Virus record (IMG/VR): IMGVR_UViG_3300029957_000005
Coordinates: 99,359-163,358 of that record
Length of the DNA stretch: 64,000 nt
From: a virus
Strand: one strand, 5' to 3'
This document shows, one piece after another, positions 31,713 to 56,147 of this stretch; position 1 is the first letter of the stretch, and each line of letters starts with the position of its first letter. The translations under genes and the position numbers were made by a program. The notes under the pieces are model-generated. The model was not told where the DNA came from. It made no database searches and saw nothing but the letters and a program-made list of their open reading frames with translations.

Positions 31713-31715
31713 AAT

Positions 31716-31808: not shown

Positions 31809-31814
31809 ATGTTT

Positions 31815-31891: not shown

Positions 31892-31897
31892 TAATCT

Positions 31898-31974: not shown

Positions 31975-31979
31975 ATAAT

Positions 31980-32056
31980 TGGTCCGGCTGATGGGATTCG
32001 AACCCACATTGGACTCCTTGAAAGGGAGGCTTCCTAGGCCATTAGAAGACAGCCGG
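31980..32056 (-). tRNA. tRNA-Glu (TTC)
   Basis: 77 bases, perfect acceptor CCGGCTG/CAGCCGG, loop CTTTCAA, canonical T-loop, CCA. Confidence 0.85.
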
Positions 32057-32140
32057 TTAATAAAGAGAGGCTCAGGAGTGTATGCCTGACTTACGCTGTC
32101 ACCTCCGCTTGGTGACAGACCTAGGCTCCGAGGAGCAAAT

Positions 32141-32215
32141 TGGCTGCAGAGGCTGGGTGTGAGCCAGCACCTCCGTCCCACAACGGGACGGCGCTCTCCA
32201 TTAAGCTACTCCACA
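32141..32215 (-). tRNA. tRNA, anticodon ambiguous (TTG, or GTG if shifted)
   Basis: 75 bases with CCA and discriminator G. The anticodon arm is a seven-pair stem CCGTCCC/GGGACGG. Taken as a normal five-pair stem, the loop is CGTTGTG with TTG at 34-36. A shifted reading gives GTG (His), but with poor pairing. T-loop CTCACAC is non-canonical. Confidence 0.55.
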
Positions 32216-32216
32216 A

Positions 32217-32292
32217 TGGCGAGGATGACGGTATTCGAAACCGCAACTATTCCGCAGACAACGGAGCACCCTTCCCAGAGGGTCCCATCCCC
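32217..32292 (-). tRNA. tRNA-Asp (GTC)
   Basis: 76 bases, acceptor GGGGATG/CATCCTC with one G-U pair, loop TTGTCTG, canonical TTCGAAT T-loop, discriminator G, CCA. It is the first tRNA after structured element N3. Confidence 0.8.
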
Positions 32293-32294
32293 AT

Positions 32295-32445
32295 TAAGCT
32301 CTGTTCAAACCTCTCTCTTCGAGATACCGGATGGAGGGTGAGGACCTACATCTTTCCCCTCCCTCACGAAGAGCGGCAGCCATATTGGACCGCAGCCACA
32401 TTGGACCGTAGCCGTCTTGAAGAGAAGAAGTTAGAACAGAGCTTA
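32295..32445 (-). ncRNA. Structured leader N3 of the middle tRNA unit
   Basis: A 12-base perfect closing stem (TAAGCTCTGTTC with GAACAGAGCTTA) spans 151 bases between the promoter at 32453 and tRNA-Asp. Inside is a tandem imperfect repeat of the unit ATTGGACCGYAGCC (near 32380-32415). No tRNA or coding feature. It may be a processing or regulatory leader. Confidence 0.5.
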
Positions 32446-32452
32446 CTGTGTT

Positions 32453-32481
32453 AGTCTATCATGCTTGTGAAGGCATGTAAA
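32453..32481 (-). promoter_or_regulatory. Early promoter copy (TTTACA-17-TAGACT) inside the tRNA cluster
   Basis: Minus strand: TTTACA 32481-32476, TAGACT 32458-32453, spacer 17. It heads the unit N3, Asp, and onward. Confidence 0.78.
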
Positions 32482-32489
32482 CTGAAAAA

Positions 32490-32514
32490 GTGGAGAAATG
32501 ACCATGTTTCTCCG
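32490..32514 (-). terminator. Terminator of the upstream tRNA unit
   Basis: On the minus strand GGAGAAA and TTTCTCC form a stem followed by ACTTTTT, just before the next promoter. It ends the unit that starts at the promoter at 35557. Confidence 0.75.
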
Positions 32515-32616
32515 CGAAGCAATTAAGAGCTTAACCTTTTGCAGACCGACAGACTTTCGTCTGACCTTATGTTTATCCACCGTGGGTCTATAGCGCAATC
32601 ACGGTGCGTTGGAATA

Positions 32617-32708
32617 TGGTGGGCCCCGGGACGTATCGCACGCCTTGCCGCATAGGGACCTGGTTTACAGCCAGGCAACCGGACTTCCGATTCTTACTTG
32701 CGGGGCCC
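32617..32708 (-). tRNA. tRNA-Tyr (GTA)
   Basis: 92 bases, perfect acceptor GGGCCCC/GGGGCCC, loop CTGTAAA in a CCTGG/CCAGG stem, long variable arm as usual for bacterial Tyr, CCA. T-arm short, with loop TGCGATA. Confidence 0.83.
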
Positions 32709-32728
32709 ATATGAAGGATTTTGCATTC

Positions 32729-32790
32729 TGCACGAATGAGAGTCGAACTCAATCGTTCCGGGACTTACACCCGTCTGCATCCTACTGGGA
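32729..32790 (-). tRNA. Degenerate tRNA-like element (possible TAA loop), no CCA
   Basis: A canonical T-arm (TGAG-TTCGACT-CTCA) and an arm ACGGG-TGTAAGT-CCCGG are present, but no acceptor stem with CCA can be drawn. Adjacent sequence forms GGGAGA/TCTCCC and TGCCC/GGGCA hairpins. Probably a pseudo-tRNA. Confidence 0.35.
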
Positions 32791-32827
32791 GAACCCATCT
32801 CCCTGCCCTTGTCGGGCATCTCTGATT

Positions 32828-32903
32828 TGGCACGGGAAGCCAGATTCGAACTGACTCTAAACGTTTTGGAGACGTTTGTGCTAGGCCATTACACCATACC
32901 CGT
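32828..32903 (-). tRNA. tRNA-Trp (CCA)
   Basis: 76 bases, acceptor ACGGGTA/TTCCCGT, loop CTCCAAA in a perfect AACGT/ACGTT stem, canonical T-loop, discriminator G, CCA. Confidence 0.87.
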
Positions 32904-32907
32904 ATGT

Positions 32908-33144
32908 TCACTTCACGAAGTGAGGCTGACCTTCCTTGGCCTTCCACTTCAATCCCTTCCAACCAGACGGGATGTAGTGAGAGATGCCAAAGGCATCGAA
33001 GAGACGATGACCACCTGACTTGGAGACGTTGAGCCAGAGAGGCTCCTCGATCCTGATAGTTTCGCCTACGAACTTGTATTCGCGCCATTCCTCCGAAGAG
33101 ATATCCACGAATTCCAATCCCGACTTATTGTTGAAGTCTGACAT
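32908..33144 (-). CDS. Conserved small phage protein
   Basis: The 78-residue protein (EFVDISSEEWREYKF ... IEEPLWLNVSKSGGHRLFDA ... KWKAKEGQPHFVK) matches a pattern I recall from hypothetical proteins of large phages, in which a ligand-like 'W+.Y.F' start leads to LNVSKSGGHR. No function is known to me. ATG 33144 fits the family start. It lies between tRNA-Trp and tRNA-Ile. Confidence 0.65.
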   Translation of the reverse strand: MSDFNNKSGLEFVDISSEEWREYKFVGETIRIEEPLWLNVSKSGGHRLFDAFGISHYIPSGWKGLKWKAKEGQPHFVK

Positions 33145-33170
33145 GATTGAATTTCCTTTCTCTGTCAAAT

Positions 33171-33246
33171 TGGTACCAGTACTAGGTTACGCTCCTAGCT
33201 ATACACGGTTATCGGCCGCGCCTCGTCACTAGCTGAGTCTACTGGC
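33171..33246 (-). tRNA. tRNA-Ile (GAT) with variant T-loop
   Basis: 76 bases, acceptor GCCAGTA/TACTGGT, loop CCGATAA (C33), T-loop AGCGTAA in a CTAGG/CCTAG stem, CCA. Confidence 0.8.
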
Positions 33247-33252
33247 ATATTA

Positions 33253-33328
33253 TGGTGCTCTATCCAGGTATCGCGCCTGGTGCCTCCTGGATGTCGACCA
33301 GGCGTCTTTACTAACTGACCCATAGAGC
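33253..33328 (-). tRNA. tRNA-Val (GAC)
   Basis: 76 bases, perfect acceptor GCTCTAT/ATAGAGC, loop TCGACAT in a CCTGG/CCAGG stem, T-loop CGCGATA, CCA. Confidence 0.82.
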
Positions 33329-33334
33329 ATTAAT

Positions 33335-33409
33335 TGGAACTAGAGGAGAGGCTCGAACTCTCAATTCCGGGGACACAACCCAGCCGGTTACCATTACCGT
33401 CACTCTAGC
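33335..33409 (-). tRNA. tRNA-His (GTG)
   Basis: 75 bases, acceptor GCTAGAG/CTCTAGT, loop TTGTGTC, canonical T-loop, discriminator T rather than the usual C of His, CCA. Confidence 0.75.
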
Positions 33410-33419
33410 ATGTTCGTTT

Positions 33420-33511
33420 TGGTACGCGATCTGGGTTTCGATCCCAGTCAAGAACGGTCATCTACCGCTAAAGGCTTTATAAGGGCCTCTCATGTCCCAA
33501 CATCATCGCGT
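33420..33511 (-). tRNA. tRNA with Ile anticodon (TAT) and long variable arm
   Basis: 92 bases, perfect acceptor ACGCGAT/ATCGCGT, loop CTTATAA with TAT, variable arm CGGT/ACCG, T-loop ATCGAAA, CCA. A long arm is unusual for Ile. Confidence 0.65.
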
Positions 33512-33519
33512 ATTCTAAT

Positions 33520-33596
33520 TGGTAGGCCTAGAGGGAGTTGAACCCACAACCACTACGTTCTAAGCGTAGCCGCTTTGCCAATTTGCGTATAAGCCC
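33520..33596 (-). tRNA. tRNA with Leu anticodon (TAG) and short variable loop
   Basis: 77 bases, acceptor GGGCTTA/TAGGCCT, loop CTTAGAA in a perfect CTACG/CGTAG stem, T-loop TTCAACT, CCA. Leu tRNAs normally have a long variable arm. Confidence 0.8.
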
Positions 33597-33602
33597 ATAT
33601 TT

Positions 33603-33679
33603 TGGTGCTCTGAGAGGGAGTCGAACCCTCACTGTACGGCATCTCAGTCCGCTTCCTCTACCAATTGGGATATCAGAGC
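33603..33679 (-). tRNA. tRNA with Leu anticodon (GAG) and short variable loop
   Basis: 77 bases, perfect acceptor GCTCTGA/TCAGAGC, loop CTGAGAT, canonical T-loop, CCA. Five-base variable loop. Confidence 0.78.
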
Positions 33680-33687
33680 AATTCGTT

Positions 33688-33763
33688 TGGAGCCCACATC
33701 GGGTAACGCTCCCGCTTCACCGGTTTACAGGACCGGACCTCATCTAATAAAGGCGTTGTGGGC
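33688..33763 (-). tRNA. tRNA-Thr (TGT) with variant T-loop
   Basis: 76 bases, perfect acceptor GCCCACA/TGTGGGC, loop CCTGTAA in a CCGGT/ACCGG stem, T-loop AGCGTTA, discriminator T, CCA. Confidence 0.83.
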
Positions 33764-33769
33764 AGATAG

Positions 33770-33823
33770 GAAGGAGAGGCTCCGTCTTGATCACCGATCA
33801 GACCACCGAGTAGTTCCTCTCCT
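33770..33823 (-). ncRNA. Unassigned hairpin between Thr tRNAs
   Basis: A nine-base perfect stem (AAGGAGAGG with CCTCTCCTT) encloses about 36 bases. No tRNA features; may be a spacer or processing element. Confidence 0.35.
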
Positions 33824-33827
33824 TGAT

Positions 33828-33902
33828 TGGAGCTTCCTGTCAGTAACGCTCTGACTTCTCACCCTTACGAAAGGCGCACATCGCTTTTAATGCTTAGGAA
33901 GC
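33828..33902 (-). tRNA. tRNA-Thr (CGT) with variant T-loop
   Basis: 75 bases, perfect acceptor GCTTCCT/AGGAAGC, loop TTCGTAA, T-loop AGCGTTA in a GTCAG/CTGAC stem, discriminator T, CCA. Confidence 0.82.
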
Positions 33903-33974
33903 ATGAATTGATCGAGGCCTTGCACCTCGCCAGCCGTAGCATTGTTAGAGACCTATGACGCGGCTCAGGTCTTT

Positions 33975-34050
33975 TGGTTGCGGGGGCTGGGTTTGAACCA
34001 GCGTCTCCGGCTTATGAGGCCAGCAAGGAACCGGGCTCCTCTACCCCGCA
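33975..34050 (-). tRNA. tRNA-Met (CAT), initiator-like
   Basis: 76 bases, acceptor TGCGGGG/CCCCGCA. The D-arm (GAGGAGCCCGGTTCC) and the loop CTCATAA resemble bacterial initiator tRNA. Position 1-72 is T-A rather than the C-A mismatch, and the three G-C pairs of the anticodon stem are incomplete. Canonical T-loop, CCA. Confidence 0.75.
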
Positions 34051-34063
34051 ATATTCCGGTTGT

Positions 34064-34120
34064 TGGTATCAGGGCGAATCACCTCATGAAAGCGATTCCG
34101 TCGGCCGACTGACCCTGAGA
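34064..34120 (-). tRNA. Mini tRNA-like element ending in CCA, no T-arm
   Basis: 57 bases: acceptor-like stem (TCAGGG/CCCTGA), a GTCGGCCGAC hairpin, and an arm GAATC/GATTC with a 13-base loop containing CAT, then TACCA. No T-arm. May be a decayed Met tRNA. Confidence 0.4.
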
Positions 34121-34121
34121 A

Positions 34122-34196
34122 TGGTGGCCCCTCTCCCTTGCAAGGAAAGATCCTCTCCCTCAACGGGAGCGCTTTGTGCCTTTAAGCTAAAGGGCC
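34122..34196 (-). tRNA. tRNA, anticodon ambiguous (TTG in a normal loop)
   Basis: 75 bases with CCA. Acceptor GGCCCTT/AGGGGCC. The anticodon arm CTCCC/GGGAG has a tight GTTGA loop, like the gene at 32141. T-loop TTGCAAG. Gln is the simplest reading, GAG (Leu) if shifted. Confidence 0.5.
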
Positions 34197-34201
34197 AAAC
34201 T

Positions 34202-34275
34202 TGGTGCTCTCAATAGGTTACGCTCCTATCTCTGCTCCTTACCAAAGAGCTATTCTACTAATGAAATATGAGAGC
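34202..34275 (-). tRNA. tRNA-Thr (GGT) with variant T-loop
   Basis: 74 bases, perfect acceptor GCTCTCA/TGAGAGC, loop TTGGTAA, T-loop AGCGTAA in an ATAGG/CCTAT stem, CCA. Confidence 0.83.
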
Positions 34276-34280
34276 AAATA

Positions 34281-34355
34281 TGGTACTTCCTGAGAATTCC
34301 GAGATCTCGACCTTCGGTATGTAACACCGCTGCTCTGCCTCTGAGCTAAGGAAGT
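34281..34355 (-). tRNA. tRNA-Val (TAC)
   Basis: 75 bases, perfect acceptor ACTTCCT/AGGAAGT, classic D-arm, loop GTTACAT, T-loop CTCGGAA (non-canonical), CCA. Confidence 0.78.
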
Positions 34356-34370
34356 ATGAATTCTTCTCGA

Positions 34371-34440
34371 CGAACCTGCAAGGAATCGAACCCTGTGTTT
34401 CCCTCTGCACGAGAGCGTCCTATCCACTAGACGAAGGTTC
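34371..34440 (-). tRNA. tRNA-like with TGC loop, CCA not encoded
   Basis: Acceptor GAACCTT/CAGGTTC (one mismatch), D-arm, loop CGTGCAG (G33), canonical T-arm. The 3' end reads GTCG, not CCA, and there is no G3-U70 pair. Possibly a pseudogene of Ala. Confidence 0.45.
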
Positions 34441-34552
34441 TCAGACAAAGACCGATCCGGCAAGACCGGCATAATCGTCTGCGAGTCAACAAGGCCCGAG
34501 TGGATTGCCGTCCAACCTTCCTTGTTCGAAGAGGGTAACAATCTCTTCTTAA

Positions 34553-34629
34553 TGGTGCCTAAGGAGGTATTCGAAACCTCATACACCTCTTTTTGAGGGA
34601 GGCCGCTTTGCCTCTTTGCGTACTCAGGC
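34553..34629 (-). tRNA. tRNA with Leu anticodon (CAA) and short variable loop
   Basis: 77 bases, acceptor GCCTGAG/CTTAGGC, loop CTCAAAA, canonical T-loop, CCA. Short variable loop like the other two Leu genes here. Confidence 0.77.
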
Positions 34630-34634
34630 TTATT

Positions 34635-34709
34635 TGGTGGAGAAGGTGGGTAACGCTCCCACTAGGCTGGAATCTTGCAAGGATTCCCCGGGTATCTCAC
34701 CCCATCCCC
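34635..34709 (-). tRNA. tRNA-Ala (TGC) with variant T-loop
   Basis: 75 bases, acceptor GGGGATG/CTTCTCC with a G3-U70 pair (Ala identity), loop CTTGCAA in a GAATC/GATTC stem, T-loop AGCGTTA, CCA. Confidence 0.85.
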
Positions 34710-34720
34710 AATTCTTGAAT

Positions 34721-34768
34721 TGGTGCCACCGATAGCCGAAGAGACAACAATGATTACCGCTCGGTGGC
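34721..34768 (-). tRNA. Minihelix-like element ending in ACCA
   Basis: 48 bases: a perfect seven-pair acceptor-like stem (GCCACCG/CGGTGGC), 30 unpaired bases and ACCA. No D-, anticodon or T-arm. A CCA-ended minihelix or tRNA relic. Confidence 0.4.
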
Positions 34769-34786
34769 AACACGGGTCATTGTATT

Positions 34787-34860
34787 TGGAGCGGATAGTG
34801 GGGATCAAACCCACCTCAACGGCTTGGAAGGCCGAGGCACAGTCACTATACCATATCCGC
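34787..34860 (-). tRNA. tRNA-Gly (TCC), second copy
   Basis: 74 bases, perfect acceptor GCGGATA/TATCCGC, loop CTTCCAA, T-loop TTTGATC, discriminator T, CCA. Different body from the copy at 31143. Confidence 0.85.
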
Positions 34861-34866
34861 AGTAAT

Positions 34867-34956
34867 TGGCTCCTATCGCAGGTACCGCCCCTGCCCCACC
34901 TTTCGATGGCCTTCCGGTTAACAGCCGGAGACTTTCACTATGCCAGTCCGATAGGA
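34867..34956 (-). tRNA. tRNA with Asn anticodon (GTT) and long variable arm
   Basis: 90 bases, perfect acceptor TCCTATC/GATAGGA, loop CTGTTAA in a perfect TCCGG/CCGGA stem, variable arm with CCA/TGG pairing, T-loop GGCGGTA, discriminator G, CCA. Confidence 0.75.
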
Positions 34957-35250
34957 ATATTGCTCTTTCGAGCAAAACGACTAAACCGATATTTGGTCAG
35001 AATGGCCTCGGTTAAAGGGCAGCAGAAAATTCGATGGGTCCACGTTTTGAAAGGACCGGACCCTTTACGCTTGGAGTTAAGTGGGTAAGTCCACCTCCAG
35101 AACGACTCGTATACCTTCTTTGGAGTCCGACTCTTACTGCCGGATACCTGTAAAGGACAATCTTCAATTGTCTAAGAACCCGAGCTTTCTTAGGCTCGTA
35201 CCTTCCGGAGAAGGATTTCTGACCGAGCCCAGTTGGTCTCAAGGTCGTAT
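34957..35250 (-). other. Gene-free stretch with several hairpins
   Basis: No complete tRNA can be folded here. It holds a GGGTCC/GGACCC stem near 35040-35065, a possible CCA-ended relic reading GGACTCCA at about 35120, and a CGAGC/GCTCG hairpin near 35180. Probably decayed tRNA sequence. Confidence 0.4.
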
Positions 35251-35325
35251 TGGTCAGGATGGTTGGTAACGCTCCAACTTTGCGGACTTCCAAGGTCCAC
35301 CGATGATCTTATCTCTTACACCCTG
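35251..35325 (-). tRNA. tRNA-Pro (TGG) with variant T-loop
   Basis: 75 bases, acceptor CAGGGTG/CATCCTG, loop CTTGGAA, T-loop AGCGTTA in a GTTGG/CCAAC stem, discriminator A, CCA. Confidence 0.8.
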
Positions 35326-47249: not shown

Positions 47250-47257
47250 TATTTATG
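47250..47257 (-). promoter_or_regulatory. Late promoter-like box CATAAATA
   Basis: On the minus strand the box ends at 47250, six bases before the A of ATG 47244. Initiation would therefore fall on the start codon, and no Shine-Dalgarno site is present. Confidence 0.65.
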
Positions 47258-47501
47258 CCAAATGCTTCTCTAGTCCTAGGAAACCACCGGGGATGTAGCC
47301 GTCCGGACCCCAGATCTGAGGTAGGGTCCAGGGCTTAGGAATTCCCATGTATTCGAGCTGATAGAAGAGATCGTCTCGATATTCCGGATGCTTGGTGTTG
47401 ATGATCTCAAAGTCCTCACCGAGGAAGTCGAGAAGGTCCTTTGCCTTCTCGCAGTGAGGACATCCGTCCTTGGTGTAGACTGTATATCCGATGTTGCTCA
47501 T
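47253..47501 (-). CDS. Glutaredoxin / NrdC-like redox protein
   Basis: The 82-residue protein has the glutaredoxin fold pattern: YTVYTKDGCPHCEKAKDLL with active-site CPHC near residues 14-17, and TLPQIWGPDGYIPGG with the cis-proline near 60. It reduces ribonucleotide reductase, which is encoded immediately upstream. Confidence 0.9.
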   Translation of the reverse strand: MSNIGYTVYTKDGCPHCEKAKDLLDFLGEDFEIINTKHPEYRDDLFYQLEYMGIPKPWTLPQIWGPDGYIPGGFLGLEKHLA

Positions 47502-49156
47502 GCTTCACACGCCTTGCAGGAAAGTAGATCTCTCGAGAGCTCCTGGGCCGGGTTGGTTGACCTCTGATAGTAGAGGGACTTGCATCCGAGCTTCCAGGCT
47601 TCGACGAGGAGTTTGGACACGTCGTTCAGAGGGGTGTCCGGATGGATCATAAGATTGGTCGACTGACCTTGATCGATTGACCTCTGACGCTGTGCTGCCT
47701 GGGTGATGATCTCGATCTGAGGAATTTCACCGAAGGTCTTGAAGACGTCCTTCTCGTGTTCGTCCAGGAAGTCAAGGCCTTGGACGGAACCACCGGCAAC
47801 AAGGATCTGATCCCATACGTCTCTGGTGTCCTTACCCTTGGACTCAAGGAGTTCCTCGAGGTGAGGGTTCCGGTAGGTGGACTTGCTCTTTGCCAGATCC
47901 TTGACGAAGTAGTTCGAGTTCAGAGGCTCGATGGATGGAGACACCTGACCAAGGATGAAGGACGAGCTGGTGGTTGGAGCGATGGCGATCCTCAGGGTGT
48001 TTCTGACTCCATAGCCCTTACAGACTTCCGGTTCACCGAAGCGAACTGCTAGGTCCTGGGAGGCCTTGAGGGACTCTTCGTCCAGGTGTCTGAAGATGAT
48101 CGCATTCTCGATCTTGGCTGCGAGGGAGGCGAAAGGAATCATCTTGGACTGGAGATAGGAGTGCCAGCCGAGGATGCCGAGACCGAGAGCACGATGGCGT
48201 CGAGCGAAGCGATTTGCCCTCTCCATGAACAGCTTCCCGGTTGTCTTGATGATGTACTCTTCCATCACAGCATCCAGGAACTGGGTTGCCGTCTGGACGA
48301 GGTCAGTATGCTTCCACTCTTCGTAGTGAAGAGCATTCAAGGACGAGAGGCAGCAGGCGAAGGACTCTTCTTCGGACGAAGGCTGGAAGATCTCGGTGCA
48401 GAGATTGGACGCATGGATTTTGAGGCCCTTGTCCATATAGCCCTGGAAGGTGTTCTTGTTGGCCGTGTCCAGGAAGATGATGTACGGGAAGCCAGTCTCA
48501 AAGCGACGCTGGATGATACGAACCCAGATCTTTCTCTTGTCCTTGTCTCCGGCCATCATGTCTTCCATCCACTGATCGGTGATGGTCACACCAAAGGACA
48601 GGTGATGGATCGGAGAGAACTCCTCCCTGAGGTTCAAGAACTCCTTGACGTCCGGATGTTCGACCGAGAGGTAGACAGCGCAATTCCCACGACGAGCCGA
48701 ACCTTGAGAGATGTTCTGGACGATGGATTGGATCGGCTCGAAGTAGTGAACCGGTCCATCTGCAGTTCCACCAGTCGAGATCTCGGAACCCCTCCTGCGG
48801 ACGTCGCTCGCAACCAGGGAAGTACCTGCACCGAGCTTGGTCATCTGACCGATTTCGGCAATAGCCTTGAGGATCGAGTCTACCGAGTCCCCCATGTAGG
48901 TTCCGTTGCAGGAGATAGGAAGCCCGCGATCGTTGCCGTAGTTGATCCAGACCGGGGTGGCCAGAGAGATCCAGCCCTTGGCCATGTAGCCTACGAACTT
49001 GTCGGCCCATCCGTCGATCTTGAGGTATTTCTCGGCTGCCCTGGCGATCTCCCAGATTCTTTCCTCTGCGGACTGACCCTCCTTGAGGTAGCCATTTGCA
49101 AGAAACTTCCGTGAGTCCTTATTGAGCCAATACCAGTCTTTGTATTTTGTAGTCAT
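47498..49156 (-). CDS. nrdA: Ribonucleotide reductase, class I large subunit
   Basis: The 552-residue protein contains PISCNG (first active-site Cys), NLCTEI (Asn-Cys-Glu catalytic centre) near 252, the paired Cys in FACCLSSLN near 267, LYYQRSTN (radical-transfer tyrosines) near 533, and a C-terminal SCKACEA redox pair. It is much shorter than E. coli NrdA (761), without the ATP-cone domain, so allosteric activity control is probably absent. It makes dNDPs with NrdB. Confidence 0.93.
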   Translation of the reverse strand: MTTKYKDWYWLNKDSRKFLANGYLKEGQSAEERIWEIARAAEKYLKIDGWADKFVGYMAKGWISLATPVWINYGNDRGLPISCNGTYMGDSVDSILKAIAEIGQMTKLGAGTSLVASDVRRRGSEISTGGTADGPVHYFEPIQSIVQNISQGSARRGNCAVYLSVEHPDVKEFLNLREEFSPIHHLSFGVTITDQWMEDMMAGDKDKRKIWVRIIQRRFETGFPYIIFLDTANKNTFQGYMDKGLKIHASNLCTEIFQPSSEEESFACCLSSLNALHYEEWKHTDLVQTATQFLDAVMEEYIIKTTGKLFMERANRFARRHRALGLGILGWHSYLQSKMIPFASLAAKIENAIIFRHLDEESLKASQDLAVRFGEPEVCKGYGVRNTLRIAIAPTTSSSFILGQVSPSIEPLNSNYFVKDLAKSKSTYRNPHLEELLESKGKDTRDVWDQILVAGGSVQGLDFLDEHEKDVFKTFGEIPQIEIITQAAQRQRSIDQGQSTNLMIHPDTPLNDVSKLLVEAWKLGCKSLYYQRSTNPAQELSRDLLSCKACEA

Positions 49157-50133
49157 TAGAACTCCAGATCGTCTTCGGAAAAGCCCTTGCCCTTCGAAGT
49201 ATAGTTGACGTCTTCCTTGAAGAAGAAGTCTGTCATGTTGTAGCCGAGGAGCTCCTCACGGAACCACTGGGCATCGTTTGATAGATTGTCGTTGGTCTTG
49301 ATGAGCGGCTGGAACCCAATGCCGACCAGGCTCTCGTTGATACGATCGCCGATGAAGTTTTTGAGAACTTCTGCATTGAGGCCTTCTTCGCTGAAGTCTC
49401 CAAGGATCCAGTCCACGATGGCTGACTCGGCCTTGAATGCTTCCCAGGCCTCATGAGCAACTTTGGACTCCAGGTCCTCGTCGAACAGCTCAGGCAGTTC
49501 CGAACGAATGGTGTTGATGATCCTCATTCCGGCCAGAGCATGAAGCTGCTCTTCATTCCGGGTGTACTGGACCTGGTTCGCTGTATCCTTGAGGATGTTC
49601 TTGCGATTGCGATGGTACCAGAGGATGATGTAGAATTGGGAAAACAGCGAAACGTTTTCTACGAAGAGGGTGAACAGGATCAGGGCGTAGATGAACTGCT
49701 TGCGATCGTTCTTGTAGACCTTGGTGATGTGCTTGCGGAGGTACTTGACTCGGTCTCCGAATACCGGAACGTTCAGGTTTTCTTCGAATGCCTTGCCGAG
49801 ATTGAGGACTTCCAGGAGCTTTTCGTATGCTCGATTGTGGATCGACTCCACGTGGGCAAAGGTATATCCTAGATCGTAGATGGATGGGTGAGGGAGAACG
49901 TCTCCGATCTTGGCCCAGAACTTCTTGACGTCCACTTCAACCTGACCAATTGCGGTGAGGGCTCGGACGATCATCTGCTTTTCTTTTTCCGGCATCTTCT
50001 TGAATTGAGAGAAGTCGGATTTGAAGGTGAACTTCTTGGGAGTCCAGAAGGTATCTTCGATGGCCTCAATAAGCTGTTGAGTCCAGGGGTAGTTGTCCGG
50101 TTTACGGGACACTTGTTCGTCAAATATTGTCAT
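49156..50133 (-). CDS. nrdB: Ribonucleotide reductase, class I small subunit
   Basis: The 325-residue protein has the di-metal ligands of NrdB: FAHVESIHNRAY with E-xx-H and the radical Tyr four residues after the His, FTLFVENVSLF, and RNEEQLH. The first acidic ligand is in QVEVDV. The C-terminal tail ends ...DLEF for docking to NrdA. The stop overlaps the nrdA start. Confidence 0.93.
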   Translation of the reverse strand: MTIFDEQVSRKPDNYPWTQQLIEAIEDTFWTPKKFTFKSDFSQFKKMPEKEKQMIVRALTAIGQVEVDVKKFWAKIGDVLPHPSIYDLGYTFAHVESIHNRAYEKLLEVLNLGKAFEENLNVPVFGDRVKYLRKHITKVYKNDRKQFIYALILFTLFVENVSLFSQFYIILWYHRNRKNILKDTANQVQYTRNEEQLHALAGMRIINTIRSELPELFDEDLESKVAHEAWEAFKAESAIVDWILGDFSEEGLNAEVLKNFIGDRINESLVGIGFQPLIKTNDNLSNDAQWFREELLGYNMTDFFFKEDVNYTSKGKGFSEDDLEF

Positions 50134-50227: not shown

Positions 50228-50785
50228 TTATATGGACAGCATAATGCTATTTATGAGTTGTTCTTGCTTCAGGTTGTCAAAAACACCATCATAAACGAGC
50301 CGTGTGCGGAATATTTTTTCGCCGGAAAGCCAATCGGATTTTCCGTAATCACGATAGGCCTGGATGACACCGTTGAAGCGATCCTTCTTCATGGCGAGGT
50401 TGTCGTCCTCGAAGTCCACTGCCACAAAGTCTCGATCCAGGAGGTAGAGACGAATGTCGAAAATGTTGTTCATTTGACTGATGGCATCATAGGTCAGCTG
50501 AATGTCCTTGCACCCGTAGATCAGGTTCGAGTGGATCGAACGATCCATGACCCAGACTTCACCGTCCACCTTCGGGAGGACTTCCAGGATCTTGAGGAAC
50601 AGAGTCAGACTCTGAGGATCGTCGATGACCATCTTCTGCCTCTTCTTGGTGGCATCCAGGAAAATGGTCTTCTTCGGAAGATCGATCAAGCGAAATGGAT
50701 CGTTCTTGCAGAGTTCACGAGCGGTGGAGGTCTTTCCGGAGGCATCGGCGCCTTCGAAGATAATGAGAATTGGCTTTGTTGTCAT
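50228..50785 (-). CDS. dNMP / thymidylate kinase-like protein
   Basis: The 185-residue P-loop kinase shows FEGADASGKTS near residues 10-20 and VMDRSIHSNLIYG near 79-91 (the DR-x motif of thymidylate kinases). It probably phosphorylates deoxynucleoside monophosphates. As the last gene of the modification operon it may act on the modified pyrimidine nucleotide made by the hydroxymethylase two genes upstream. Confidence 0.8.
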   Translation of the reverse strand: MTTKPILIIFEGADASGKTSTARELCKNDPFRLIDLPKKTIFLDATKKRQKMVIDDPQSLTLFLKILEVLPKVDGEVWVMDRSIHSNLIYGCKDIQLTYDAISQMNNIFDIRLYLLDRDFVAVDFEDDNLAMKKDRFNGVIQAYRDYGKSDWLSGEKIFRTRLVYDGVFDNLKQEQLINSIMLSI

Positions 50786-51672
50786 GAGAACAGTATATCA
50801 CTTATGGTTGGAATGTTGAACGGAGAAACGATGTCGCAGCCAAAAAATATCAGTTCGCCGAGACCTGGATGGAAGCAGAATTCCGGGTCCTCGAGGTAGA
50901 TGATGGTCGGACGAGACATGAGGATGGCATAGTACTCATACTTGGACGGCTTGATCTTCCGGACGAAGCGATCGTCAGCCAGGCTCTCATTCGGGTCGGT
51001 GACCACCAGCTTCTTGCCCATACGGACTGCGAGGCTCTGGGCCTTCTCGAAACGGTAGCACGGATCTGAAATCCGAAATGGGAAGAAGATCTCATTCGAT
51101 GCAAGTCTCTGGATCTGAAGAGTCCTTGGAACAAGGCTCGATAGGACTTCGGTGTTGACCACCTTCTGATTGACCACGATCTTCTCAGGATCAGCTCCTA
51201 TGTGAGTCAGTCTGTCTTTCTGCCAGGTGTTGAAGACTTGCGCCTGCTCCGTCCTTCCGCTGTTGATGGACGCTACATCTCGAGCCAGGAACTCGTCTAC
51301 GTACGGACGAGAGATCAGAGGATGGGAGGTGATCTCGAGGTAGTAGACGATCGGAAGATCGATTGGACAACCAGTCATATTGGTCACGATCCGATCCACA
51401 CCTTCCGGGATCTGGAGTCCCGGGTTCAGGTCCCAGAAGCTCTTCCGATTCTCATAGGCGTTCAGACCGTACTTGGCCTTGATGATCCGATCCCACCTGA
51501 TCAGGCCAAAGGCTACGAACACATCGATGCCGATGGAGTTCTCCGGGATGACGATGAAATCATCCCTCTTCATCCGATGAAGGTGGACTTGAAAATTGCC
51601 GTCCTTTGAGACGTCGTAGAGATTCGTCTCATAGGAACGCATAGAGTATATCGGAACGTGTAGGGTGCTCAC
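50782..51672 (-). CDS. GT-B-type glycosyltransferase candidate
   Basis: The 296-residue protein lacks a named family match. The C-terminal half has a GT-B-like donor-site pattern: EIFFPFRISDPCYRFEKAQSLA near 190-211, then LVVTDPNE, IKPSKYEYYAILMSRPTIIYLEDPE and FHPGLGE. It starts at GTG 51672 in a GTGA overlap. Its position between a pyrimidine hydroxymethylase and a kinase, with NDP-sugar genes upstream, suggests it transfers a sugar to modified DNA. Confidence 0.62.
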   Translation of the reverse strand: MSTLHVPIYSMRSYETNLYDVSKDGNFQVHLHRMKRDDFIVIPENSIGIDVFVAFGLIRWDRIIKAKYGLNAYENRKSFWDLNPGLQIPEGVDRIVTNMTGCPIDLPIVYYLEITSHPLISRPYVDEFLARDVASINSGRTEQAQVFNTWQKDRLTHIGADPEKIVVNQKVVNTEVLSSLVPRTLQIQRLASNEIFFPFRISDPCYRFEKAQSLAVRMGKKLVVTDPNESLADDRFVRKIKPSKYEYYAILMSRPTIIYLEDPEFCFHPGLGELIFFGCDIVSPFNIPTISDILFS

Positions 51673-52412
51673 AGGCGGAGTCCTAGCGGCTCTGAGGCTG
51701 GTCTAAAGGTGTTGACGTATGCTTCATCTCTCTCGAAGACGTGAGCGTTCTGAAGGAAGCCAGTCCAGTGTGTCCTCTCGATCTCGACTCCAGCCTCGTC
51801 CAGTTCGTCGGCCAGCTTTTTGAGGAGCTTGCCTTGAAGGTAGATGTCGAGCTGGAATACGGTCGCCAGATTTTGGGATCGCATCACAGTGGACATGAAC
51901 AGAGTCTTGTTTCTGATCTGGAAGGAATACGAGATCGTGCACGGGTATTCGAGAGTCTCATCCTTGTCCAGGAGGGCTGCGTCGCCTCCATCCAGAATTG
52001 TGATCACAGCACGTCTGGTGTTCGGAGAACGAACCATCTCATCGAACATCATCGGGTACTGCTCCGCAATCCTCGGCCCGTAGAAGGTGTTGAAGTTTGC
52101 CGGGAGCTCAGTGGACTTCGGCTTATCCAGGAACTTGGAGACCTGCGGATAGGCCTTGAATGCCTCCTGGGCATCGGTTCCGCCGGAAATCATGAAGCTC
52201 CAGAAATCCTCTGCATACTTGTACGAGATGCGATTGATCTCCGGATCCTGATTGAACACGAACGTTCTCGGATCGTTGACCACAATGCCGAGGTTCAGGA
52301 TCTCATAGGCCTTTCCGATCCTGGTCTCTGAGACAAAGTCCGGAGTCAGGATGGCGTGGGTGTTCGCCATCTTGAAGGCATTTGCAAAGGTGGATGCGTA
52401 TATGGTTCTCAT
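51669..52412 (-). CDS. Thymidylate synthase family protein, probable pyrimidine hydroxymethylase
   Basis: The 247-residue protein has the TS-family core: EYPCTISYSFQIRNKTLFMSTVMRSQNL with catalytic Cys near 153, then a QLDIYLQGKLLKKLADEL helix. T4 dCMP hydroxymethylase (gp42) is a relative. The segment that in thymidylate synthases binds dUMP with Asn is divergent here. Embedded among sugar-nucleotide genes, a dCMP or dUMP hydroxymethylase is more likely than plain dTMP synthesis. That step is inference. Confidence 0.72.
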   Translation of the reverse strand: MRTIYASTFANAFKMANTHAILTPDFVSETRIGKAYEILNLGIVVNDPRTFVFNQDPEINRISYKYAEDFWSFMISGGTDAQEAFKAYPQVSKFLDKPKSTELPANFNTFYGPRIAEQYPMMFDEMVRSPNTRRAVITILDGGDAALLDKDETLEYPCTISYSFQIRNKTLFMSTVMRSQNLATVFQLDIYLQGKLLKKLADELDEAGVEIERTHWTGFLQNAHVFERDEAYVNTFRPASEPLGLRL

Positions 52413-52786
52413 CTATTTGGTTTCTCACTTTCGATTTCTTCAATTATAACATCAAGCTCGCCTCGATGGTACAGTTCTTTGAACGCCCATGGGTCCATAG
52501 CCTTGTCGTCGATGATCATATCGTAGGTCGGCTTGTGGGTCAGGAGCTCGTGGTACTTGAGTCCGATCTTGGCCAGGTTCTCGAGGAGCGGAGGGATGAT
52601 CGCCTCCTTGATTCCGTCCGGACCCACCGAGTTCATGCCTCTGGCAGTGAAGAGCTTAATGTAGTGCCCGTCCTCATAGAGGCCATTGATGATCCGAACC
52701 ATCTCCTTGTCAGGAGCGAAGTTGGCGTAGTCTCGGTTTGGGTTCCAATGGACGATGGTGTCATCCACATCAAAGCAAAAGATCAC
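52409..52786 (-). CDS. HAD-family phosphatase
   Basis: The 125-residue protein begins at GTG 52786 (VIFCFDVDDTIVHWN) in a GTGA overlap with the upstream stop. FDVDDT is HAD motif I, TARG is motif II (IKLFTARGMN) and IIDDKAM is the motif IV acidic pair. It matches the short HAD type used in sugar-nucleotide pathways. A larger frame to 52930 is a reading-frame artefact. Confidence 0.8.
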   Translation of the reverse strand: MIFCFDVDDTIVHWNPNRDYANFAPDKEMVRIINGLYEDGHYIKLFTARGMNSVGPDGIKEAIIPPLLENLAKIGLKYHELLTHKPTYDMIIDDKAMDPWAFKELYHRGELDVIIEEIESEKPNR

Positions 52787-54315
52787 AGATTCTTCCTCAT
52801 CAGGTAGGTGCCGTACATGTAGGCTGCAAGGCTCTTGTATGGGTTGTTCTTGAAGTAGCCGGCAAGGGCCATCCAGATCACTCCGACCATGAGCTTGTGC
52901 TGACGATCGAAGAACAAGGACGTGTCCCAATTGGGCAGCTTCGGCTCGATGTCCACAAAGGCATATTCACCTTCGACTCTGAACCCTGCCCAGTCCGGCT
53001 GACTATTGAACTTGTCGTATCCGGAACAAGCATACATGTACTTGGCGATGTCGTAGTCCTTGGGACCGAAGAGCTTGGTCGAACCGAAGTAGCCTCTTGG
53101 ATCGATCAGAGCCAGGGTCTCGTCCGGCTGGACGATGATGTTTGAGAAGTTCGGATCTCCGTGGATCAGATGATACTCGGTCGGGAGGAACTTGGAGATC
53201 TGTTCGAACGTCTCGCAGATGAGACCCATCTCGGTCATGTCGATCCGAAGGCCGTTGATGACCTTGATGTGCTCGAACTGGTCGATCAGATATCGGATCG
53301 AGTGATTGCGGACGATGACCTTGTCCACGAACTCCTTCTGATAATCCCTCTGAATCTGGTCCAAGTCCATCTCTATGGAGAGCGAATTGTTCCGAGTGTA
53401 TGTCAAGAGGTCGTGGACATAGGACTTGATCATTGGCTCGCTCTGGAAGGAGGCCAGCGGGCGTCCTTCTATCTTCTCGAGAGCGATGACGTTGTCTTCT
53501 CCGTAGACGCCGAGGAGCTTGGCCGGTCGAACTATGTTCGAGAGAGTTTGGTACTTGGCCATTTCTTCGTACCAGGCGACCTCGTTCTTCTGGAGTTCGA
53601 TGGCCGGTTCGGTTAGAGCAGTCTTGACCACATAGTCCGCGTGGATCTCGACCGTATTGAAGCTCCTCGAGACCTGTTCATGGTTGTGGACCTTCTTGAG
53701 CTTGACCATGTCTCCGATGTCGACCACCATTCCGAGAGGCTCTTCGATGTGTTTGTCTAGATCATAGACCTCGACGAGATCGCCTTCAGAGTCGATGCAC
53801 TTGAAGTTCTTGAACTGGAAGACGCCGATGACGTTGCCTCCGGTCTTTCCTACGTTGTGCATCTCGCCTTCCTTGAAGAAGTATCGAGACTCATTGCCGT
53901 GGGTGTAGACCGCATTCTTCTTCCAGAACGTCTTGTCAGTGAAGAGCTTTGTCTGCCCTGAAGGGAAGGCGATCACATCGGACCAGTTGAAGACAACGTT
54001 CTCGCCGTCCAGGTTCCTGACTCGATTGAGCTCATTGATCGCATAGGCCGAGCCGAGTGGCTTGTCCACGCCGATGGCATAGACTCCCTGATCCACGAAG
54101 CCATTGTCCTCGAGGTATCCTTCGACCATGGCCAGCTGATGCTTTGGTACAACGACCCAGACCTCATTGGCCTTGAGGACGCTTTTGTATATTGAAATCT
54201 GATACTTAAGTGCTGGGTCGTTGTACCAATTGACCAGGACTTTTGGAATGACCGAAGAGATTGGGTGGAGGCGTGTTGCCAAGCCTGCCCCGACGATGAC
54301 TGCTATTCTGCTCAA
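52783..54315 (-). CDS. Bifunctional sugar nucleotidyltransferase and APH/choline-kinase-like kinase
   Basis: The 510-residue protein joins an N-terminal nucleotidyltransferase (GAGLATRLHPISSVIPKVLVN, residues about 9-29, like the GxGTRL...PK motif) to a C-terminal APH-type kinase (HLIHGDPNFSNIIV near 382-395 and LIDPRG near 405). It could phosphorylate a sugar and attach a nucleotide, forming an NDP-sugar. TTG start in a TTGA overlap with the isomerase stop. Confidence 0.8.
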   Translation of the reverse strand: MSRIAVIVGAGLATRLHPISSVIPKVLVNWYNDPALKYQISIYKSVLKANEVWVVVPKHQLAMVEGYLEDNGFVDQGVYAIGVDKPLGSAYAINELNRVRNLDGENVVFNWSDVIAFPSGQTKLFTDKTFWKKNAVYTHGNESRYFFKEGEMHNVGKTGGNVIGVFQFKNFKCIDSEGDLVEVYDLDKHIEEPLGMVVDIGDMVKLKKVHNHEQVSRSFNTVEIHADYVVKTALTEPAIELQKNEVAWYEEMAKYQTLSNIVRPAKLLGVYGEDNVIALEKIEGRPLASFQSEPMIKSYVHDLLTYTRNNSLSIEMDLDQIQRDYQKEFVDKVIVRNHSIRYLIDQFEHIKVINGLRIDMTEMGLICETFEQISKFLPTEYHLIHGDPNFSNIIVQPDETLALIDPRGYFGSTKLFGPKDYDIAKYMYACSGYDKFNSQPDWAGFRVEGEYAFVDIEPKLPNWDTSLFFDRQHKLMVGVIWMALAGYFKNNPYKSLAAYMYGTYLMRKNL

Positions 54316-54941
54316 GCTGCTTCCTCTCTGAGCATTGCTCCCAATGCTCCACCTGGATGATACTTCAGAAAGTCTTCTCGTGTAAACCCAATTTTTTCAG
54401 AAAGTTGGGTTCCGATCAAATCCAGAAGAGTCAAGAGAATTGTGGTGGATGTGGTCGGGGCCAGGGCATGGAGATCGATCTCGGTGACCTTGCCGGTGTA
54501 GATGATCCAATCGAAGATGCGATGGTTGAAGGAGTTCAGAAAGAATTCGATCGGCTGACAGGTCAGGAGTACCTGAACCACATTCGGCTTGATCTTGTCC
54601 AGGTGGGCAGCAGCCGAGAGCATCTCGATGGTCTGCCCGGATCTGGACAGATGGATAACGATGTCCTCGTCTCCGATGAAGCCGAAGTCTCCGTGGGAGA
54701 GGTGGCTCGTATTCAGATACGCCGATCGGAGACCGAGAGATGCAAAGGTTTCTGACGCCTTCATGGCCAAGGAAGCGTTCTTCCCGACGCCCGTGATGCA
54801 GATCTTGCCTCCAGGATACTGAAGGTGTCGATTGTGAATTCGGGTGATGAGGGTTCGGAACTCTTCCTCTTGGAAGCCTAGAAATCCGGAAAGTTGTGTG
54901 AGATAGGCCTGGACGAGAGAGATCTGATTTTCATAATTCAT
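54312..54941 (-). CDS. SIS-domain sugar-phosphate isomerase, arabinose-5-phosphate isomerase type
   Basis: The 209-residue protein matches the KdsD/GutQ SIS domain: CITGVGKNASLAMKASETFASLGL near 48-71, NTSHLSHGDFGFIGDEDIVIHLSRSGQT near 77-104, ALAPTTSTT near 159-167 and HPGGALG near 194-200. KdsD converts ribulose-5-phosphate to arabinose-5-phosphate. The CBS domains of KdsD are absent. It is the first gene of the six-gene operon. Confidence 0.87.
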   Translation of the reverse strand: MNYENQISLVQAYLTQLSGFLGFQEEEFRTLITRIHNRHLQYPGGKICITGVGKNASLAMKASETFASLGLRSAYLNTSHLSHGDFGFIGDEDIVIHLSRSGQTIEMLSAAAHLDKIKPNVVQVLLTCQPIEFFLNSFNHRIFDWIIYTGKVTEIDLHALAPTTSTTILLTLLDLIGTQLSEKIGFTREDFLKYHPGGALGAMLREEAA

Positions 54942-54996: not shown

Positions 54997-55605
54997 ATGG
55001 CAAAAAGAATAGCATCCGTCAATACCCGAAGGGAACGATTCCGTGAGAAGGAAGTCCAGAGAGACGCCATCAAGTGGTTCATCGGGACTCTTCGTGGAAC
55101 CCAGCAGAACAACGTCGGATCCGGAGATCTCGATCCCAACCTGCTCCTCCAGAACAGGCGCTCCACAGTCAATCTGATCCCCGGTCAGATCTACTTCATG
55201 AGGTACGATCCGAAGCACAAGGATACCCTTCCTTACTACGACACGGCACCTCTCTTCATCCTTCTGGACATTCGAGAGAACGGTCTGTTCGGGATCAACA
55301 CCCACTACCTTCCGTACCGTCTACGCATCCAGTTGATCAATGCCCTCCTGGACACGATCACCGCAAAGAAGTGGGATCACAAGACCAAGGCTCAGATCAA
55401 CTACCAGATGGTCAAGAGCATGTCGAAGTACGGCATCTGCAAGCCGGCCCTCAAGTCCTATCTGTTCGACCACATGCGATCCAAGCTGGTTCGTGTTCCA
55501 GCTGAGAACTGGAAGAGGGTTGCATACCTACCAATCGAAACCTTCGTCAAGGCCAGCAAACAGCGTGTGTGGCGCGAAACAGAGCGAGCAACAAAGAGAA
55601 GTTAA
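54997..55605 (+). CDS. Conserved T4-like phage protein (LPYYD...HYLP family)
   Basis: The 202-residue basic protein has PGQIYFMRYDPKHKDTLPYYDTAPLFIL (about 62-89) and FGINTHYLPYRLRIQL (about 97-112). This pattern is common in T4-like marine phages. I recall such proteins being annotated as virion or DNA-end-protector (gp2-like) proteins but cannot confirm it. It precedes a homing endonuclease with a TAATG overlap. Confidence 0.65.
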   Translation: MAKRIASVNTRRERFREKEVQRDAIKWFIGTLRGTQQNNVGSGDLDPNLLLQNRRSTVNLIPGQIYFMRYDPKHKDTLPYYDTAPLFILLDIRENGLFGINTHYLPYRLRIQLINALLDTITAKKWDHKTKAQINYQMVKSMSKYGICKPALKSYLFDHMRSKLVRVPAENWKRVAYLPIETFVKASKQRVWRETERATKRS

Positions 55606-56147
55606 TGTTTCATTTTGTGTACAAGACCACCAATCTAGAGAACGGTCGTTACTACATTGGCAAGTGTACTACGAAGTATCTCAACAAGAAGTATCTGGGC
55701 TCTGGTAAAATTCTTTTGGAAGCGATCAAGAAGTATGGAGAAGAGAATTTCAAAAGAGAAATTCTAGCCTTCACTGATTCTCCAGAAGCCAATGCAGAAA
55801 AGGAAAAGGAGTTGATAGGAGATTTGTGGGAAACAGATCTTCTTTGCTACAACCTCAAAGCTGGCGGACTAGGAGGCAGGCCAAAAGGAATGCCTTTGAC
55901 TCGAATCGCAAGATACAAAATCTCCATGGCTCTAAAAGGCAAAGCTAAGAGTCCAGAACATGTTGCTAATCTCAAGAAACGAGTCTTTTCAGAAGAGACC
56001 AGACGACGCATATCAGAAGCAGCGAAGAATAGAGCTCCTATGACTGAAGAGCATAAAAGAAAGCTCGGTATGATTCACAAAGGAAAGCCTTTGTCTGAAG
56101 AACACAAGCGTAAAGTTTCTGAAGGGGTCAAGAGGGCGTTGGCATGA
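55605..56147 (+). CDS. GIY-YIG homing endonuclease (Seg-like) with NUMOD3 repeats
   Basis: The 180-residue protein has a GIY-YIG domain (FVYKTTNLENGRYYIGKC, residues 4-21; the canonical GIY is replaced by FVY) with EKELIGDLW later, and C-terminal NUMOD3-like repeats (SEETRRRISEAAKNR, TEEHKRKLG, SEEHKRKVSEG). It cuts phage DNA lacking the gene and so spreads itself. Base composition is visibly A/T-richer than its neighbours. It starts in the TAA of the previous gene and its stop overlaps the next ATG. Confidence 0.9.
   Translation: MFHFVYKTTNLENGRYYIGKCTTKYLNKKYLGSGKILLEAIKKYGEENFKREILAFTDSPEANAEKEKELIGDLWETDLLCYNLKAGGLGGRPKGMPLTRIARYKISMALKGKAKSPEHVANLKKRVFSEETRRRISEAAKNRAPMTEEHKRKLGMIHKGKPLSEEHKRKVSEGVKRALA

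What the first reader, a model, noticed from the sequence alone, without database searches (positions are those of the whole stretch)
50228..54941. Six-gene operon for a sugar-decorated hydroxymethylpyrimidine DNA base, probably arabinose
In one overlapping operon lie an arabinose-5-phosphate isomerase (SIS, KdsD-type), a nucleotidyltransferase fused to an APH-type kinase, a HAD phosphatase, a thymidylate-synthase-family hydroxymethylase, a GT-B-like transferase and a dNMP kinase. Together these could make NDP-arabinose, hydroxymethyl-dNTP and the final glycosylated base. RB69 is known to carry arabinosyl-hydroxymethylcytosine using an A5P isomerase and a nucleotidyltransferase. Here the kinase fusion and linked phosphatase suggest a different route.
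Basis: partly seen in the sequence, partly recalled or inferred. Interest (0 to 1): 0.86.

Follow-up and report, generated by a model that had tools for sequence, protein, structure and literature searches.

The report
Phage operon for arabinose-tagged hydroxycytosine DNA
An uncultured T4-like phage carries, in six overlapping genes, the set that known phages such as RB69 and LC53 use to replace DNA cytosine with a cytosine bearing an arabinose on an oxygen, so it is a new and distant member of a known DNA-protection system rather than a new route.

Summary
The interpretation needs two corrections. (1) The route is not different from RB69: RB69, LC53, Konradin and PspYZU05 carry the same six genes, including the nucleotidyltransferase-kinase fusion and the HAD phosphatase, in the same relative order. 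(2) The TS-family enzyme is almost certainly a 5-hydroxy-dCMP synthase, not a hydroxymethylase. It groups with the enzymes of RB69, Bas47, LC53 and Thanatos, and shares Asn and Val where thymidylate synthase and dCMP hydroxymethylases have the folate-site Asp and Gly, while keeping the catalytic Cys and the cytosine-specifying Asp. Recent papers report that these phages carry arabinose or a pentose directly on 5-hydroxycytosine, and that the original RB69 'ara-hmC' was a misassignment. The A5P isomerase, absent in Thanatos (a non-arabinose pentose), points to arabinose. The GT is GT-B and no second arabinosyltransferase was found, so single arabinosylation is predicted. New here: a carrier outside the Straboviridae with an alphaproteobacterial-type tmRNA. 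A new member of a known kind.

The parts
54312..54941 (-). D-arabinose-5-phosphate isomerase (SIS, KdsD/KpsF type), first gene of the operon
   Evidence: phrog_5670 1.2e-70, SIS PF01380 above cut-off, TIGR00393 2.6e-25; motifs GVGKN, HGDFG, HPGGALG; 55% identical to RB69 ORF055c
52783..54315 (-). Sugar-1-phosphate nucleotidyltransferase fused to APH-type kinase, 510 aa, TTG start; lacks the ~50-residue C-terminal tail of Straboviridae homologues
   Evidence: phrog_4098 6e-139; PF00483; AF2 pLDDT 92, RmlA/MurU-like N-terminal domain; profile hits to heptose-pathway NTase 5xhw/6jq8 and APH kinases 3uzr/3ham
52409..52786 (-). HAD phosphatase, 125 aa, GTG start overlapping the previous stop by 4 bp
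   Evidence: phrog_1238; EcbF-BcbF capsule phosphatase 1e-5; solved orthologue 9iqw 1.5e-44; motifs DVDDT, TARG, DDK; 62% identical to RB69 ORF051c
51669..52412 (-). Thymidylate-synthase-family enzyme, predicted 5-hydroxy-dCMP synthase (not a hydroxymethylase)
   Evidence: phrog_160; 56-57% to RB69 ORF048c vs 21% to T4 gp42; PDB orthologues 9iqc/9iqu/9ir2; Cys158, Asp189 (cytosine type), Asn181 in RSQN replacing the folate Asp
50782..51672 (-). GT-B glycosyltransferase, predicted DNA 5-hydroxycytosine arabinosyltransferase
   Evidence: phrog_3891 4.8e-83; AF2 pLDDT 92.3 pTM 0.88; Foldseek to GT-B glycosyltransferases and to both halves of the split RB69 gene ORF047c/046c
50228..50785 (-). P-loop kinase, predicted 5-hydroxy-dCMP (dNMP) kinase
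   Evidence: phrog_761 5.9e-11, Walker motif GADASGKT; 27-32% to the kinase in the same cassette of LC53, PspYZU05 and Acj9
49156..50133 (-). Ribonucleotide reductase small subunit, next gene downstream (94 nt gap), dNTP supply neighbour
   Evidence: PF00268 4.5e-46
47498..49156 (-). Ribonucleotide reductase large subunit-like neighbour, followed by a glutaredoxin-like ORF 47253-47501; assigned from sequence and position only
   Evidence: open reading frames; junctions; no family search was run on these two

Best explanation
The operon makes 5-(arabinosyloxy)cytosine in the phage DNA. Sugar arm: the SIS isomerase turns ribulose-5-P into D-arabinose-5-P; the fused kinase and the HAD phosphatase move the phosphate from C5 to C1 (either kinase first through arabinose-1,5-bisphosphate, as in GmhA/HldE/GmhB heptose synthesis, or phosphatase first, as in MupP/AmgK/MurU); the nucleotidyltransferase domain makes NDP-arabinose. 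Base arm: the TS-family enzyme hydroxylates dCMP at C5 (no one-carbon unit), the P-loop kinase and host enzymes raise it to the triphosphate, the polymerase inserts it, and the GT-B enzyme adds arabinose to the C5 oxygen in DNA. Shown: gene content, homology, folds, signature residues. Inferred: each catalytic step and the identity of the sugar in this phage. The likely purpose is evasion of restriction and CRISPR nucleases.
For: Same six genes in the same relative order in phages whose DNA was analysed: RB69 (PMC13390438) and LC53 (PMC12409353). Bas47, reported to carry doubly arabinosylated hydroxycytosine (PMC12923530), has the same TS. The TS falls in a 98/96-supported clade apart from three dCMP hydroxymethylases; 48 of 49 collected TS relatives have Asn at ThyA-D169, Val at G173 and Asp at N177, hydroxymethylases have D/G/D. 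Thanatos, with a non-arabinose pentose on the oxygen of cytosine C5, has the fusion, HAD, TS, GT and kinase but no SIS in its genome, so SIS tracks arabinose. The GT model is GT-B. The NTase domain's best solved relative is a heptose-pathway NTase, the kinase domain hits APH kinases. The phosphatase slot is refilled by other phosphatases elsewhere: His_Phos in PTm1, another HAD in L090. The genome also has a MazG-type NTP pyrophosphohydrolase and dCMP deaminase and a ThyX-family ORF, so the cassette TS is probably not needed for dTMP.
Against: No chemistry on this phage. Identity to characterised phages is mostly 36-62%. The NTase-kinase lacks the C-terminal tail of the Straboviridae proteins. 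The Thanatos GT orthologue TH1_063 was reported as a UDP-xylose pyrophosphorylase (PMC12838424), which conflicts with a simple transferase role. The SIS-arabinose link rests on few chemically typed phages. The primary papers on the pathway (Lee 2025, Mahler 2025) were not held and are cited through PMC13390438, PMC12923530 and PMC12409353.
Confidence: 0.78

Rival explanations
1. Arabinosyl-hydroxymethylcytosine: the TS homologue is a folate-dependent dCMP hydroxymethylase and the GT arabinosylates hmC.
For: TS superfamily member with the cytosine-type Asp and catalytic Cys; RB69 was first described this way (PMC6024577).
Against: Only 21% identity to T4 gp42 against 57% to the RB69 enzyme; separate clade; the Asp that binds the folate pterin ring is Asn in 48 of 49 relatives; PMC13390438 calls the RB69 methyl group erroneous.
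Confidence: 0.06
2. The base is 5-hydroxycytosine but the sugar is another pentose (for example a deoxypentose or xylose as in Thanatos), or two or three arabinoses are added by an unrecognised second transferase.
For: The GT and fusion are 36-39% identical to those of Thanatos as well as of RB69; the fusion lacks the usual C-terminal tail.
Against: The window has the A5P isomerase that Thanatos lacks. No homologue of the ORF003c-type second transferase (phrog_8302) at E<=1 in the 163 kb held.
Confidence: 0.13
3. The sugar arm serves capsule or LPS modification and the TS is an ordinary thymidylate synthase.
For: SIS, NTase and HAD families also occur in capsule synthesis (EcbF-BcbF, KpsF); divergent SIS-NTase pairs occur in other phage contigs without TS or GT nearby.
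Against: Six genes overlapped with TS, dNMP kinase and GT, next to ribonucleotide reductase; the TS carries the cytosine Asp and lost the folate Asp; a separate ThyX-family ORF exists; related contig L092 has a true ThyA near the cassette TS.
Confidence: 0.03

Closest known systems
Ara-hydroxycytosine cassette of RB69 (Mosigvirus) and LC53 (Winklervirus)
   Same: Same six families in the same relative order SIS > NTase-kinase > HAD > TS > GT > dNMP kinase, including the fusion and phosphatase
   Different: RB69 has peptidase and small ORFs, and LC53 endonuclease, peptidase and small ORFs, inserted between HAD and TS; both lie between DNA polymerase and uvsX, RB69 with a second transferase ORF003c elsewhere. 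The window cassette is compact, sits beside nrdB/nrdA, has no ORF003c homologue, and is mostly 36-62% identical
Compact cassette of Acinetobacter phage Konradin (Lazarusvirus) and Pseudomonas phage PspYZU05
   Same: Exactly the same six-gene compact order
   Different: Straboviridae, locus near DNA polymerase; Konradin has two phrog_8302-type transferases next to it
Shewanella phage Thanatos pentosyl-cytosine cassette
   Same: NTase-kinase, HAD, TS, GT, kinase in the same order
   Different: No SIS gene in the genome; sugar reported as a deoxypentose, not arabinose (PMC12838424)
T4 hmC/glucosyl system (gp42 + alpha/beta-gt)
   Same: TS-superfamily enzyme on dCMP, post-replicative GT-B transfer
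   Different: T4 gp42 is a true hydroxymethylase with the folate Asp; T4 uses host UDP-glucose (own knowledge); 21% identity
GmhA/HldE/GmhB heptose and MupP/AmgK/MurU salvage routes
   Same: Phosphosugar source + HAD phosphatase + anomeric kinase + nucleotidyltransferase logic (PMC10948575; PMC5371407); NTase domain closest to a heptose-pathway NTase, MurU among its fold matches
   Different: Pentose instead of heptose or MurNAc; APH-type kinase fused to the NTase; phage-encoded and coupled to DNA base synthesis

Membership tests
Phage arabinosyl-hydroxycytosine (ara-hC) cassette | Six-gene set SIS, NTase-kinase, HAD, TS, GT(phrog_3891), dNMP kinase | tested here: met
   All six with own HMMs, E 1e-60 to 1e-210; the window proteins were among the model rows, so the independent support is PHROG hits and tblastn; order as in Konradin and PspYZU05
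Phage arabinosyl-hydroxycytosine (ara-hC) cassette | TS homologue of the 5-hydroxy-dCMP synthase clade | tested here: met
   Clade support 98/96 with RB69, Bas47, LC53, Thanatos; Asn/Val/Asp signature
Phage arabinosyl-hydroxycytosine (ara-hC) cassette | Second DNA arabinosyltransferase (ORF003c type, phrog_8302) | tested here: not met
   No hit at E<=1; not a defining feature of all members, it is thought to add the second arabinose in Mosigvirus
Phage arabinosyl-hydroxycytosine (ara-hC) cassette | 5-arabinosyl-oxy-cytosine in virion DNA | not testable with these tools
   No isolate, no DNA
dCMP hydroxymethylase (T4 gp42) | Asp at ThyA position 169 and Gly at 173 (folate site) with Asp at 177 | tested here: not met
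   N, V, D in the window; D, G, D in T4, Mexia and Aeromonas enzymes
Thymidylate synthase ThyA | Asn at 177 (uracil specificity), Asp at 169 | tested here: not met
   Asp and Asn instead; PF00303 does not ring in the genome
GT-B glycosyltransferase | GT-B fold | tested here: met
   AF2 pLDDT 92; 58 PDB matches at E<=0.001, the 50 listed being glycosyltransferases of GT-B type and UDP-GlcNAc 2-epimerases or their kin, TMq up to 0.58
D-arabinose-5-phosphate isomerase | SIS domain with KdsD-type histidines and HPGGALG motif | tested here: met
   HGDFG at 83 and HPGGALG at 195; TIGR00393 matched over the SIS part only, below its full-length cut-off; activity not tested

The most novel reading that the evidence does not exclude
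The cassette is two interchangeable modules: a base module (TS, GT, kinase) making and decorating 5-hydroxycytosine, and a sugar module (SIS, NTase-kinase, phosphatase) whose make-up sets the sugar. The window phage would be a non-Straboviridae, alphaproteobacterial phage with a singly arabinosylated genome, and the jumbo phages that pair the sugar module with a true dCMP hydroxymethylase would carry the genuine arabinosyl-hydroxymethylcytosine once wrongly ascribed to RB69.
Probability: 0.3. Interest if true: 0.6.

Novelty: new member of a known kind. Interest (0 to 1): 0.42.

Why it matters
It extends the arabinosyl-hydroxycytosine system to a T4-superfamily phage outside the Straboviridae, probably of an alphaproteobacterium, with all six genes overlapped: a compact unit for reconstituting the unsolved donor pathway. 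The Asn/Val signature gives a quick test to tell hydroxycytosine from hydroxymethylcytosine phages in uncultured genomes, where annotation calls both 'thymidylate synthase' or 'dCMP hydroxymethylase'.

Tried and rejected
E58 and W80 of ThyA also seemed lost in the TS clade, but a different alignment places a Glu and a Tyr there, so I do not use them; D169, G173 and N177 lie in an ungapped block and are used. TTG 52930 as HAD start was rejected for GTG 52786 (4-bp overlap, Shine-Dalgarno-like AGGAAG). Searches for the NTase-kinase in bacterial genomes found none, and for the TS only one contig of an Omnitrophota MAG, which has the same length as an IMG/VR viral contig and is probably that virus. 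The nearest packaging-gene relative, phage C48C1 (terminase 54%), gave no match to TS or NTase-kinase profiles. The jumbo contigs L080-L089 first looked like sugar-module-only phages; TS-family enzymes in those examined turned out to be a ThyA and a true hydroxymethylase type.
Full report
What is there. The window is bases 99359-163358 of a 163,358-base IMG/VR virus record. On the minus strand, 54941-50228, six genes run head to tail: SIS-type arabinose-5-phosphate isomerase, a 510-residue nucleotidyltransferase-kinase fusion, a 125-residue HAD phosphatase, a TS-family enzyme, a GT-like protein and a P-loop dNMP-kinase-like protein. Every junction is a 4-bp overlap; the HAD start is GTG 52786, not the TTG of the mechanical ORF list. 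Ribonucleotide reductase genes follow 94 nt downstream. The operon has nearly the G+C of the genome (0.517 vs 0.526).

Relatives. tblastn in 50,697 phage records finds the fusion in 366, the GT in 338, the TS in 373, the HAD in 375, the SIS in 268 and the kinase in 124, mostly the same Straboviridae. RB69 has ORF055c SIS, ORF053_052c fusion, ORF051c HAD, ORF048c TS, ORF047c/046c GT (one gene split by a frameshift in the record; both halves match our GT model) and ORF045c kinase. LC53 has the same set. Konradin and PspYZU05 have the six genes with nothing between. Identities to these four phages are 49-59% SIS, 36-42% fusion, 51-63% HAD, 51-56% TS, 36-51% GT (the top value being one half of the split RB69 gene), 20-28% kinase (the RB69 kinase fell below the blastp cut-off there but is found by phmmer at 4e-6). 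So the kinase fusion and linked phosphatase do not mark a new route; RB69 has both.

The base. RB69 was first reported to carry arabinosyl-hydroxymethylcytosine (PMC6024577). PMC13390438 states that this was erroneous: the arabinose is joined directly to C5 of cytosine through oxygen, made from 5-hydroxy-dCMP by a TS-superfamily '5-hodCMP synthase'. Bas46/47 have doubly arabinosylated hydroxycytosine (PMC12923530), LC53 an arabinosylated genome (PMC12409353). The window TS is 57% identical to the RB69 enzyme and 21% to T4 gp42. Solved orthologues are 9iqc/9iqu/9ir2 (7e-78), labelled 'thymidylate synthase'. In a tree, 19 sequences including window, RB69, Bas47, LC53 and Thanatos form a 98/96 clade, apart from T4, Mexia and Aeromonas hydroxymethylases and ThyA. 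In the ungapped RS-block, 48 of 49 collected relatives have Asn, Val, Asp where ThyA has D169, G173, N177 and hydroxymethylases have D, G, D. From established knowledge of ThyA, D169 holds the folate pterin and N177 (Asp in T4 gp42) chooses uracil or cytosine. Losing the first while keeping the second, Cys146, R166 and H207 fits a cytosine enzyme that no longer transfers a one-carbon unit. The genome has a separate ThyX-family ORF (genome 16821-17852, PF02511 1.6e-11; its motif reads THR where canonical ThyX has RHR, so its activity is unsure), a MazG-type NTP pyrophosphohydrolase (15032-15571), a dCMP deaminase (19516-20031) and a dNMP phosphatase (51148-51753) (genome coordinates).

The sugar. 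Thanatos DNA carries a deoxypentose on the cytosine oxygen (PMC12838424). It has fusion, HAD, TS, GT and kinase orthologues but no SIS in its 160 kb, nor have Marfa or Pm5461. RB69 and LC53, with arabinose, have SIS. The SIS in the window therefore argues for arabinose; this is a correlation over few chemically typed phages. The fusion has NTase motif GAGLATRLHP, kinase loop HGDPNFSN and DPRG, an AF2 model of pLDDT 92 whose NTase part matches RmlA and MurU, and profile hits to the heptose-pathway NTase 5xhw/6jq8 and to APH kinases 3uzr/3ham. Two known pathways have this logic: GmhA/HldE/GmhB (PMC10948575; kinase first) and MupP/AmgK/MurU (PMC5371407; phosphatase first). The evidence does not choose between them. 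That a phosphatase step belongs to the pathway is supported by replacement: a histidine phosphatase follows the fusion in Tenacibaculum phage PTm1, and another HAD follows it in contig L090. The HAD-like N-terminus fused to the GT in L092 is my reading of the sequence only (no Pfam hit).

The transferase. The GT has no significant Pfam or PDB sequence match but folds confidently (pLDDT 92.3, pTM 0.88) into GT-B. Its Thanatos orthologue TH1_063 (phrog_3891) was reported as a UDP-xylose pyrophosphorylase; a GT-B fold and the presence of an NTase in the same operon make transfer the likelier main role, but the conflict stands. No phrog_8302 (ORF003c) homologue was found in the held genome at E<=1, so one arabinose per base is predicted, provided the record is complete.

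Wider survey. In IMG/VR the contig L076 has SIS > fusion > HAD > TS > GT in the same order up to the contig end. L092/L142 are divergent versions. Contigs L114, L117, L118, L131 and the Pootjesviridae have TS > GT, mostly with the kinase, without SIS or fusion nearby. Jumbo contigs up to 342 kb have SIS > fusion; in the six whose TS was read, 15-22 kb or so away there is a TS of the true hydroxymethylase type, and in the three where the other TS was read, it is a ThyA. This suggests a base module and a sugar module that assort, and that genuine arabinosyl-hmC may exist in jumbo phages.

Host and place. Terminase places the phage in the T4 superfamily nearest C48C1 (54%), then cyanophages and a Pelagibacter phage, outside Straboviridae. 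A permuted tmRNA of the alphaproteobacterial type suggests an alphaproteobacterial host.

Verdict.

Noticed in passing
window 26139-26405 (-): Permuted (two-piece) tmRNA of the alphaproteobacterial type, Rfam RF04321 119 bits and RF01849 76 bits, tag ANDNVSYEGVALAA; suggests an alphaproteobacterial host. A phage paper holding the term 'permuted tmRNA' came up (PMC9004378) but was not read.
   Followed up: partly
window 28164-35325 (-): Array of 24 tRNA genes found by ARAGORN.
   Followed up: no
L080-L089 (IMG/VR contigs, up to 342 kb): Jumbo phage contigs with SIS + NTase-kinase pair plus, in those examined, a separate ThyA and a TS-family enzyme with the true dCMP hydroxymethylase signature some 15-22 kb away: candidates for genuine arabinosyl-hydroxymethylcytosine.
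   Followed up: partly
L092 3724-5379 and 9084-10623: GT of the phrog_3891 type with an N-terminal HAD-like region (by eye), next to SIS and NTase-kinase; a true ThyA and a dCMP deaminase lie nearby on the other strand.
   Followed up: partly
L008 4598-5498 (RB69 ORF046c/ORF047c): The RB69 transferase gene in the cassette is split by a frameshift in the reference record, as was already known for ORF053c/052c.
   Followed up: yes
L052 4760-5662 (Thanatos TH1_063): Reported as UDP-xylose pyrophosphorylase, but belongs to the same phrog_3891 family as the GT-B transferase of this operon; the assay result and the fold disagree.
   Followed up: partly
L015, L016 (Pootjesviridae OLIVR5, phiM9): TS of the hydroxycytosine clade followed by a phrog_3891-related GT, without SIS or NTase-kinase nearby: probably hydroxycytosine decorated with a sugar from another source.
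   Followed up: no
window 55569-56147 (+): By eye a GIY-YIG/Seg-like homing endonuclease reading frame just downstream of the DNA end protector gene.
   Followed up: no
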